Shown here: in pieces, positions 33,122 to 39,611 of the stretch
Layout of the letters: each line of letters opens with the position of its first letter
Numbering within the stretch: the stretch's first letter is position 1
NCBI GenBank assembly: GCA_024398135.1
Contig: CP073750.1
Span: 744,001-808,000, forward strand
Direction: 5' to 3'
DNA from: a bacterium SCSIO 12643
GTDB lineage: Bacteria; Bacteroidota; Bacteroidia; Flavobacteriales_G; Salibacteraceae
DNA length: 64,000 nt
Notes under the pieces: generated by a model
Seen by the model: only the letters and a program-made list of their open reading frames with translations
What the model was told of the DNA's origin: nothing
Database searches by the model: none
Made by a program: the position numbers and the translations under genes

Positions 33122-33129
33122 TTCTGAAA

Positions 33130-33240
33130 ATTGGCAACGACATACTCTCCCGCCTATTACAGCAGTACCATCTGCGCTGGTGGGCTTAACTTCTCTGTTC
33201 GGAATGGAAAGAGGTGATCCCCACCGCTATAGTCACCATA
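33130..33240 (-). rRNA. rrf: 5S ribosomal RNA
   Basis: The minus strand shows the conserved 5S core CCATTCCGAACAGAGAAG and AAGCCCACCAGCGC, with ends that can pair (TTGGCAACGAC region with the start near 33240). Length about 110 bases; ends approximate. It is the last gene of the operon. Confidence 0.93.
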
Positions 33241-33307
33241 AACTATTCAATATTTTCGAAATTTTGAAGATAGACTTAATAACTTATACATCATCTCGGT
33301 TATTAGA

Positions 33308-36172
<2,865 letters not shown>

Positions 36173-36397
36173 AATCGAAATGATTTACAGTTATTAAGCC
36201 TTTTATAATAATATCTCTATTGTTAATGTTATCTTCAAAATTTCAAAGAACTTTTTTGATACCAATGTATCAATTGTGAAAGATTTGGAGTTGAACCATT
36301 TTCTCGCTTACCTTATTAAGCTTCTTTCTTTATTCCTTTTACAGATCTTTTGGCTCGTAAGCCGTTTTTGAGTAATTAGCGTTCCAATATACTCTTG

Positions 36398-36471
36398 TGG
36401 AGAATATCGGAGTCGAACCGATGACCTCCTGCGTGCAAGGCAGGCGCTCTAGCCAGCTGAGCTAATCCCCC
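36398..36471 (-). tRNA. tRNA-Ala (anticodon TGC)
   Basis: 74 bases on the minus strand, starting GGGGGATTAGCTCAGCTGG with anticodon loop CTTGCAC and T-arm GGTTCGACTCC. The acceptor stem pairs with TTCTCC-A. CCA is not encoded. It is the spacer tRNA next to 23S. Confidence 0.97.
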
Positions 36472-36478
36472 GTTATTG

Positions 36479-36552
36479 TAGTCCCAGGCAGACTTGAACT
36501 GCCGACCTCTACATTATCAGTGTAGCGCTCTAACCAGCTGAGCTATGGGACT
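36479..36552 (-). tRNA. tRNA-Ile (anticodon GAT)
   Basis: 74 bases on the minus strand with acceptor AGTCCCA/TGGGACT, D-arm AGCTCAGCTGG, anticodon loop CTGATAA and T-arm AGTTCAAGTCT. CCA is not encoded. It lies between 16S and tRNA-Ala, 7 bases from the latter, the usual order of a spacer Ile-Ala pair. Confidence 0.97.
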
Positions 36553-36668
36553 CTATTCCCTTTCCTCTTACCGATAAAAACCCTACCGAGATTTCCGGGA
36601 TCTCAATAATTTTAAATAGCGAAAAGCGCAAATATCCAACAGATATATAATTGTGTAGTACACTCTAA

Positions 36669-38193
<1,525 letters not shown>

Positions 38194-38352
38194 AATAAAC
38201 TTAATTGTCTATCACTCTTAAATATCTTGGGGGATATTTGCTTAAATTTTTATGCTTTTCAACTATTCAAAGAACTTTAATATTCTTTTCTCTTATTCAC
38301 TTCGTCTCGTTCCCGAGACTCAACTCTTAAGAGCTTATTTCTTTTAATCTTT

Positions 38353-38400
38353 GCCCCTCGAAAGGGGCGGCAAAGGTAACTCTAGTTTTTATTCTGACAA
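38353..38400 (-). promoter_or_regulatory. rRNA promoter P1 (proximal)
   Basis: Minus strand: -33 TTG at 38398-38400, exactly 19 bases, then -7 TACCTTTG at 38371-38378, followed by CCGCCCC and an inverted repeat GCCCC-N6-GGGGC (38353-38368). Matches the Bacteroidota housekeeping promoter consensus. Confidence 0.85.
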
Positions 38401-38474
38401 GCTTTTTCTGAAAAAATATTTTTTTTCTTCCTAACTCACCACTTCAAAACCGCACCAACCTTTTCAAAAACTAT

Positions 38475-38521
38475 CCCCGCGAACGGGGCGGCAAAGGTAA
38501 CTCTATTTTCTTTCCAAACAA
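38475..38521 (-). promoter_or_regulatory. rRNA promoter P2
   Basis: Minus strand: TTG at 38519-38521, 19-base spacer, TACCTTTG at 38492-38499, then CCGCCCC and a CCCC-GTTCGC-GGGG-type inverted repeat. 121 bases upstream of P1. An A/T-rich tract lies just upstream. Confidence 0.85.
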
Positions 38522-38601
38522 GAAAAAATTAAAAAAAATATTTTTCTTTTTTCTCGCTCCTCCTACTCCTCAATCTCTCCCGTTACCTCAACTTTTTCTT
38601 T

Positions 38602-38648
38602 ACCCCCGAAAGGGGCGGCAAAGGTATGTCGTTTATCCTTCTCCTCAA
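38602..38648 (-). promoter_or_regulatory. rRNA promoter P3 (distal)
   Basis: Minus strand: TTG at 38646-38648, 19-base spacer, TACCTTTG at 38619-38626, then CCGCCCC and a short GC-rich inverted repeat. 127 bases upstream of P2. Confidence 0.85.
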
Positions 38649-38900
38649 CCATATTTTTGAACTATTTTTTAAATATTTTTAGTTTAAACACATAACTCCC
38701 TCTTATACCATTACATACAGCACGATTTTTTTTTAGCTTTTCTTTAACCAATTCCACCTCACAATCCAACTCCTTAATCATCCCTGCAAGACACCTTTAT
38801 TATATAGGAGTTATATAAATACTAATTCACTGGATTTACTTACGAGATCTTTCTACAAAAAGATTCATTTCTGGGTTATTTAAGAGATAAAAAGTTTTAC

Positions 38901-39611
38901 TTAAGGATTTGTAATCGCAACAGACAGGGTTTTACCATTATAAAATTTATACCCGTGACTCGCGAAACTATAAATATACGCCCCCATTTCGACAGGATTG
39001 ATTGTTGCTTGATAATCCGGGAAAGCTTTTTGTAACATTTCTGTATTTACAGAACCTATGGCCAAAGCATTCACATGAATATTTTTTTTTCCATATTCTA
39101 CAGAAGCACTCTCCAACCAGGATCCTAATGCTGCTTTAGACGCCCCATAAATAGACAAGCCCCCAAATCTAACACTGCCTTGATATCCTGACATAGATGT
39201 TATACCTAAGATATTAGCTTGTTCACTTTTTTCCAGATATGGTTCTAATAATTGAGTGAGCAATACAGGCACATTAAAATTCACTCTAAAAACTCGGTCT
39301 ATATGTGCTTGATCAATATCAGAACAATCTTTGACTTCCAAAACTCCAGCAACATGAATCGCAGCATCTAATTTTTCTACATTTAGATGAATGAGTTTTT
39401 CTTCAACCTTTTCAACTACCTGATCATCCAAAAGGTCAACATTGATCATATTCAATTCTCCTGAGTAGTTTCTCGCCAGAGATTCTAAATCTCTTTGTTG
39501 ATCTTTATTTCTTAAGACTCCGATAACATTCCAACCATTCTTCAAGAAACTAAGACATGTTTCTTTTCCAATACCAGATCCAACACCGGTGATAAAAGCA
39601 CAATTCTTCAT
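38901..39611 (-). CDS. Short-chain dehydrogenase/reductase
   Basis: A 236-residue classical SDR oxidoreductase, NAD(P)-dependent. It has the cofactor motif ITGVGSGIGKE (TGxxxGIG), HVAGVLE in place of NNAG, the catalytic Ser in ITSMSGYQG, and YGASK with the catalytic Tyr and Lys. The C-terminal substrate region is short and the substrate is unknown. Its ATG shares one base with the stop of the upstream sensor-like gene (TAATG type), so the two are translationally coupled and probably function together. Confidence 0.88.
   Translation of the reverse strand: MKNCAFITGVGSGIGKETCLSFLKNGWNVIGVLRNKDQQRDLESLARNYSGELNMINVDLLDDQVVEKVEEKLIHLNVEKLDAAIHVAGVLEVKDCSDIDQAHIDRVFRVNFNVPVLLTQLLEPYLEKSEQANILGITSMSGYQGSVRFGGLSIYGASKAALGSWLESASVEYGKKNIHVNALAIGSVNTEMLQKAFPDYQATINPVEMGAYIYSFASHGYKFYNGKTLSVAITNP

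What the first reader, a model, noticed from the sequence alone, without database searches (positions are those of the whole stretch)
38353..38648. Three tandem rRNA promoters with identical geometry and GC-rich starts
Each copy reads TTG-N19-TACCTTTG-CCGCCCC on the minus strand and is followed by a short GC-rich inverted repeat. They are spaced 121 and 127 bases apart, with A/T-rich tracts upstream of each. The identical 19-base spacer and discriminator argue for selection. A GC-rich discriminator is the hallmark of stringent control in other phyla, and the inverted repeat would form a hairpin at the very 5' end of each transcript.
Basis: partly seen in the sequence, partly recalled or inferred. 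Interest (0 to 1): 0.65.

Follow-up and report, generated by a model that had tools for sequence, protein, structure and literature searches.

The report
C-rich starts of Bacteroidota growth promoters
Three real promoters in a row drive this ribosomal RNA operon, and the run of C's at their start recurs across the Bacteroidota phylum at promoters of rRNA, tRNA and ribosomal-protein genes, which makes it a likely but untested handle by which these bacteria tie ribosome production to growth.

Summary
Three copies of TTG-N19-TACCTTTG-CCGCCCC lie on the minus strand (38648-38612, 38521-38485, 38400-38364) upstream of a complete 16S-Ile-Ala-23S-5S operon. Each is followed by a short hairpin with a UUCG loop whose closing pair varies. 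The genome's second rrn operon has the same three, but as a 99.98% identical block, so it is not independent evidence. Comparison is: the 15-base core is identical while flanks are only about 40% identical, nearly all of 111 Bacteroidota rrn leaders carry one to five such promoters, and position 5 after TTTG (the predicted start) is C in 162 of 166.

The main new result is wider than the finding. The same C-rich start marks rpsL and rplU promoters phylum-wide, but not fabI. In this genome about half of the non-rrn promoters carrying it drive tRNA, ribosomal-protein or tRNA-synthetase genes. The hairpin is a second layer: common at rpsL (21/28) and rrn (84/166), rarer at rplU (5/20), absent at fabI (0/16). 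Stringent control is plausible and testable, not shown. No start site has been mapped.

The parts
38612..38648 (-). Promoter P1 (distal): TTG 38648-38646, -7 element TACCTTTG 38626-38619, C-rich start CCGCCCC 38618-38612
   Evidence: Exact match; same copy in the second rrn operon
38485..38521 (-). Promoter P2 (middle): TTG 38521-38519, TACCTTTG 38499-38492, CCGCCCC 38491-38485
   Evidence: Exact match
38364..38400 (-). Promoter P3 (proximal): TTG 38400-38398, TACCTTTG 38378-38371, CCGCCCC 38370-38364
   Evidence: Exact match
38603..38615 (-). Hairpin after P1: CCCC-TTTCG-GGGG, UUCG loop possible with a U.G closing pair
   Evidence: Fold -7.0 kcal/mol, 1.4% of shuffles as low
38475..38488 (-). 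Hairpin after P2: CCCCG-TTCG-CGGGG
   Evidence: Fold -8.9 kcal/mol, 1.8% of shuffles as low
38354..38367 (-). Hairpin after P3: CCCCT-TTCG-AGGGG
   Evidence: Fold -7.0 kcal/mol, 2.2% of shuffles as low
38649..38676 (-). A/T-rich tract upstream of P1 (86% A/T), UP-element-like
   Evidence: Composition; function inferred
38522..38549 (-). A/T-rich tract upstream of P2 (93% A/T), UP-element-like
   Evidence: Composition; function inferred
38401..38428 (-). A/T-rich tract upstream of P3 (82% A/T), UP-element-like
   Evidence: Composition; function inferred
38265..38275 (-). boxA-like GTTCTTTGAAT in the 16S leader
   Evidence: Sequence; such motifs follow 69/166 rrn promoters of the class against 1 after shuffling; antitermination role inferred
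33129..38193 (-). rRNA operon driven by P1-P3: 16S 38193-36669, tRNA-Ile, tRNA-Ala, 23S 36164-33301, 5S 33240-33129
   Evidence: Rfam and ARAGORN

Best explanation
These are three tandem primary-sigma (sigma-ABfr type) promoters of a Bacteroidota rRNA operon, and their C-rich start is a phylum-wide mark of promoters that make the translation machinery. The most likely mechanism: A/T tracts upstream recruit RNA polymerase strongly, while the C-rich stretch just after the -7 element, beginning with a C directly after TTTG, makes the open complex short-lived, so that output falls quickly when (p)ppGpp rises or initiating nucleotides fall. Two to five copies in tandem raise the ceiling of transcription. 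Where present, the inverted repeat folds the first transcribed bases into a 5'-terminal hairpin that probably helps promoter escape or shields the 5' end of the leader. Shown here: the architecture, its conservation, its attachment to translation genes, and the excess of hairpins over controls. Inferred: start sites, promoter kinetics, ppGpp control and the role of the hairpin.
For: Exact repeated core in diverged flanks. 111 rrn leaders with 1-5 tandem promoters in nearly all. C at position 1 and at position 5 after TTTG: rrn 145/166 and 162/166, rpsL 28/28 and 28/28, rplU 20/20 and 18/20, fabI 4/16 and 5/16. In the own genome 39 hits of TAHNTTTGCNNYCC against 5 of the reversed pattern; 13 of 27 plausible non-rrn hits drive tRNA, r-protein or aminoacyl-tRNA-synthetase genes against 0 of 18 control promoters. 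In B. thetaiotaomicron repression of ribosomal and aminoacyl-tRNA pathways depends on (p)ppGpp (PMC10746209). Two DksA/TraR-domain proteins in this genome. From general knowledge: in E. coli rrn P1 a GC-rich discriminator with C next to the -10 element underlies stringent control.
Against: No start site, promoter activity or ppGpp response was measured for any of these promoters. By the usual spacing part of the C run is transcribed, so it is not a discriminator in the strict E. coli sense. Whether the DksA-like proteins act like DksA is unknown; the larger one lacks most zinc-binding cysteines. The C-rich start could mark strength rather than regulation. Growth genes outside translation also carry it.
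Confidence: 0.5

Rival explanations
1. The C-rich start only marks strength: it is the best start sequence for sigma-ABfr polymerase, kept because these genes need the strongest promoters. It carries no regulation of its own.
For: All marked genes are expected to be highly expressed; A/T-rich upstream tracts, also a strength feature, accompany rrn copies (mean 82% A/T).
Against: GC-rich melting regions usually slow promoter opening (general knowledge), which is an odd way to gain strength. Other highly needed genes such as fabI lack it.
Confidence: 0.25
2. The hairpin is the functional unit: transcripts of growth genes begin with a stem-loop that protects the 5' end from pyrophosphohydrolase or nucleases, or speeds promoter escape, and the C run is conserved because it is the 5' arm.
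For: Stems of three or more G-C pairs in 21/28 rpsL (3.9 expected), 84/166 rrn (42.6 expected), 5/20 rplU (0.7 expected), 0/16 fabI. Own downstream sequence pairs better than swapped sequence for rpsL, rplU and rrn, not for fabI. In the window the closing pair varies U.G, G-C, U-A around a constant UUCG loop. The 5' arm mostly starts at position 4-5, the predicted +1.
Against: About half of rrn and three quarters of rplU promoters keep the C run without a stem, so the C run cannot be conserved for pairing alone. G.U against A-C counts do not favour an RNA role.
Confidence: 0.13
3. Initiation at a C run senses CTP or leads to reiterative C addition, so that rRNA, tRNA and r-protein output follows the pyrimidine nucleotide pool.
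For: In F. johnsoniae the start is 4 or 5 bases after the -7 element (PMC6847099), which places it on the conserved C at position 5 or on position 6.
Against: C is generally a poor initiating nucleotide and polymerase may start at the next purine instead. No start site was mapped.
Confidence: 0.1
4. The three copies are a recent tandem duplication without special meaning.
For: Weak local similarity of P2-P3 upstream flanks and of P1-P2 downstream flanks.
Against: Flanks are 32-44% identical without gaps while the core is 15/15; a sister species keeps three; the same start occurs at unrelated promoters of the genome and across the class.
Confidence: 0.02

Closest known systems
sigma-ABfr primary promoters of Bacteroidota (TTTG at -33, TAnnTTTG at -7)
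   Same: TTG and TAnnTTTG elements, usual spacing, expected distance to the start site (PMC7366714, PMC6847099).
   Different: Adds a conserved C-rich start, tandem arrangement and a frequent start-site hairpin; the general consensus as published in these papers ends with TTTG.
E. coli rrn P1-P2 promoters under stringent and growth-rate control (general knowledge)
   Same: Tandem promoters, A/T-rich upstream sequence, GC-rich stretch with C directly after the melting element, boxA in the leader.
   Different: Different promoter elements and sigma factor, up to five near-equal copies, a bias to C rather than mixed G and C, a frequent start-site hairpin; ppGpp and DksA control not tested here.

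Membership tests
sigma-ABfr primary promoter | TAnnTTTG -7 element with TTG/TTTG about 19 bases upstream | tested here: met
   Three exact copies, spacer 19; spacer 18-21 in the class
sigma-ABfr primary promoter | Start site 4-5 bases after the -7 element | not testable with these tools
   No RNA data for this organism; spacing taken from PMC6847099
Stringently controlled rrn P1-type promoter | Drives an rRNA operon, in tandem | tested here: met
Stringently controlled rrn P1-type promoter | GC-rich stretch with C directly after the melting element, shared by rRNA, tRNA and r-protein promoters | tested here: met
Stringently controlled rrn P1-type promoter | Inhibition by ppGpp (with DksA), short-lived open complex | not testable with these tools
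   Only indirect: (p)ppGpp-dependent repression of ribosomal pathways in B. thetaiotaomicron (PMC10746209)
Stringently controlled rrn P1-type promoter | DksA homologue in the genome | tested here: inconclusive
   Two proteins over the PF01258 cut-off, one with a degenerate zinc finger; function unknown
Stringently controlled rrn P1-type promoter | RelA/SpoT enzyme in the genome | not tested
Antitermination-type rrn leader | boxA-like sequence in the leader | tested here: met
   38275-38265; enriched after class promoters, 69/166 against 1 shuffled

The most novel reading that the evidence does not exclude
Bacteroidota growth genes share a two-part start-site code not described elsewhere: a C-run initiation sequence at the predicted +1 and, in many, a covarying 5'-terminal hairpin. 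Together they set transcription of rRNA, tRNA and ribosomal-protein genes at the step from initiation to elongation, by a mechanism that differs from E. coli stringent control.
Probability: 0.25. Interest if true: 0.75.

Novelty: new variant of a known kind. Interest (0 to 1): 0.55.

Why it matters
Bacteroidota, a dominant gut and environmental phylum with an unusual primary sigma factor, must scale ribosome production with growth, and the promoter element responsible is not identified in the papers I could search. A sequence mark shared by rRNA, tRNA and ribosomal-protein promoters across the phylum gives a concrete element to mutate in B. thetaiotaomicron or F. johnsoniae. It would also help predict the growth regulon from sequence and guide the choice of promoters for expression vectors.

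Tried and rejected
The second rrn operon as independent evidence: rejected, the block including the promoters is 99.98% identical over 5760 bases, so gene conversion explains it. Recent tandem duplication of one promoter as sole cause: rejected, flanks are near background, though weak local similarity leaves an old duplication possible. Hairpin as universal: rejected. RNA-level against DNA-level role by G.U tolerance: inconclusive. Naming the organism through the SDR gene upstream in genome contigs: one unrelated locus only, so the organism is placed only as Bacteroidota, by its promoters, 16S start and relatives. Literature searches for a C-rich or GC-rich start in Bacteroidota rRNA or r-protein promoters found none in the open library; subscription papers are not covered, so a prior description cannot be excluded. 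Pattern hits judged spurious, inside ORFs or terminator-like: L174, L175, L183, L193, L208, L210.

Full report
WHAT IS THERE. On the minus strand the window holds a complete rRNA operon: 16S 38193-36669, tRNA-Ile, tRNA-Ala, 23S and 5S. Upstream are three copies of TTG-N19-TACCTTTG-CCGCCCC at 38648-38612, 38521-38485 and 38400-38364, 127 and 121 bases apart. Neither CCGCCCC nor TTG-N19-TANNTTTG occurs anywhere else in the 64 kb. The 28 bases before each TTG are 82-93% A/T. Each start is followed by a hairpin with a UUCG loop: CCCC-UUUCG-GGGG, CCCCG-UUCG-CGGGG, CCCCU-UUCG-AGGGG. Shuffles of the same bases reach that energy in 1.4-2.2% of trials. A boxA-like GTTCTTTGAAT lies in the leader at 38275-38265.

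IS IT SELECTED. The genome (4.12 Mb, one contig) has two rrn operons. Both carry all three promoters, but the two operons are 99.98% identical over 5760 bases including the promoters. Independent evidence comes from inside the window and from relatives. The three copies are identical in the 15-base core and only 32-44% identical in the ungapped flanks. A species of the same genus (L074) has three promoters at about the same spacing, with TACCTTTGCCGCCCCTTACGAGGG, TACATTTGCAGCCCCTTAGGGG and TACCTTTGCCGCCCCTTACGAGGG.

HOW WIDESPREAD. I collected 111 distinct rrn leaders from the family and from 395 genomes drawn evenly from the class. Nearly all hold one to five TTG-N18..21-TAnnTTTG promoters, often about 100 bases apart. 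After filtering near-identical starts, 166 promoters remain. Their start reads C, A/C, C/G, C/T, C, C/G, C/G, followed by A/T: position 1 is C in 145, position 5 is C in 162. In F. johnsoniae the start site lies 4 or 5 bases after the -7 element (PMC6847099), which puts +1 at position 5 or 6. Tandem C-rich rrn promoters are therefore the rule in this class, not a peculiarity of this organism. A boxA-like sequence follows 69 of 166 promoters, against 1 after shuffling.

THE WIDER RESULT. The C-rich start is not confined to rRNA. In this genome TAHNTTTGCNNYCC occurs 39 times, and 5 times when the pattern is read backwards. Six hits are the rrn promoters and I judged six spurious. Of the other 27, 13 drive translation genes: rpmB, rpmH, rpsL-rpsG, rplM-rpsI, rplU-rpmA, rpsU, an operon with rpmF, tyrS, and tRNA units for Met, Gln, Val, Thr-Tyr-Gly-Thr and Pro-Arg. 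rpsF has a close variant, CCGACCC. A sigma-70-family gene that looks like the primary sigma factor, prs, hpt-adk, HU and a bactofilin gene ahead of an apparent ATP-synthase cluster also carry it. Among about 18 plausible promoters with the same -33/-7 elements but no C at positions 5-6, none drives a translation gene (Fisher p = 3e-4). The classification was partly by eye, and the control set is the first 30 hits by position. Across the class, C at positions 1 and 5 is found in 28/28 and 28/28 rpsL, 20/20 and 18/20 rplU, but 4/16 and 5/16 fabI promoters.

THE HAIRPIN. Stems of at least three contiguous G-C pairs between the C run and the following 23 bases occur in 21/28 rpsL promoters (3.9 +/- 2.0 after shuffling), 84/166 rrn (42.6 +/- 5.0), 5/20 rplU (0.7 +/- 0.8) and 0/16 fabI. 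The start pairs better with its own downstream sequence than with one swapped in from another genome for rpsL (1 of 300 swaps as good), rplU (1 of 300) and rrn (0 of 300), but not for fabI (92 of 300). Relatedness among genomes is not fully removed by this test. The hairpin is thus real above background but optional, while the C run is close to universal. I could not tell an RNA role from a DNA role.

MECHANISM. The simplest reading is a counterpart of stringent and growth-rate control of E. coli rrn P1. There, from general knowledge, a GC-rich discriminator with a C next to the -10 element shortens open-complex life and makes the promoter sensitive to ppGpp, DksA and initiating-nucleotide levels. 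In B. thetaiotaomicron, repression of ribosomal and aminoacyl-tRNA pathways during host fasting depends on (p)ppGpp (PMC10746209), and this genome encodes two DksA/TraR-domain proteins. The larger has lost most zinc-binding cysteines but keeps a DxxD...EE stretch that resembles the DksA tip (read by eye). None of this shows that the C run is the element responsible. A pure strength signal, a hairpin-first role and CTP sensing remain open.

VERDICT. The stringent reading gains support from the shared regulon mark but is untested. I found no published description of the C-rich start or of the hairpin in the open literature searched; subscription papers were not covered.

Noticed in passing
window 38901-39611 (-): A short-chain dehydrogenase-like gene lies directly upstream of this rrn operon, and a similar reading frame (NTEM...FPGY...VNPENMA) ends just upstream of rrn in several genera of the family (L016, L020, L031), so the neighbourhood looks syntenic.
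   Followed up: partly
L182, genome position 862100-862141 (+): The gene of a membrane-bound H+-pyrophosphatase has a -7-like TATATTTG directly followed by CGCCCCCTTTTATAAGGGGGCG and TTTTATTT: a long perfect hairpin plus T-run that looks like an intrinsic terminator at the predicted transcript start.
   Followed up: no
G133:C1 756128-766899 and G295:C3 22784-28248: 16S starts lie about 5.2-5.5 kb apart on the same strand, so two or three rrn operons seem to stand head to tail in some members of the class.
   Followed up: no
L271 1231-1605 (+): A DksA/TraR-family protein with a mostly lost zinc finger but a DGSD...EE stretch like the DksA coiled-coil tip; candidate partner for stringent control.
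   Followed up: partly
L206 (genome 2662062-2662021, -): The tRNA-Pro/tRNA-Arg unit has the rrn-type start GCGCTCCCTTAAGGGAAC followed at once by a boxA-like AGTTCTTCAC, so boxA may also serve a tRNA operon.
   Followed up: no
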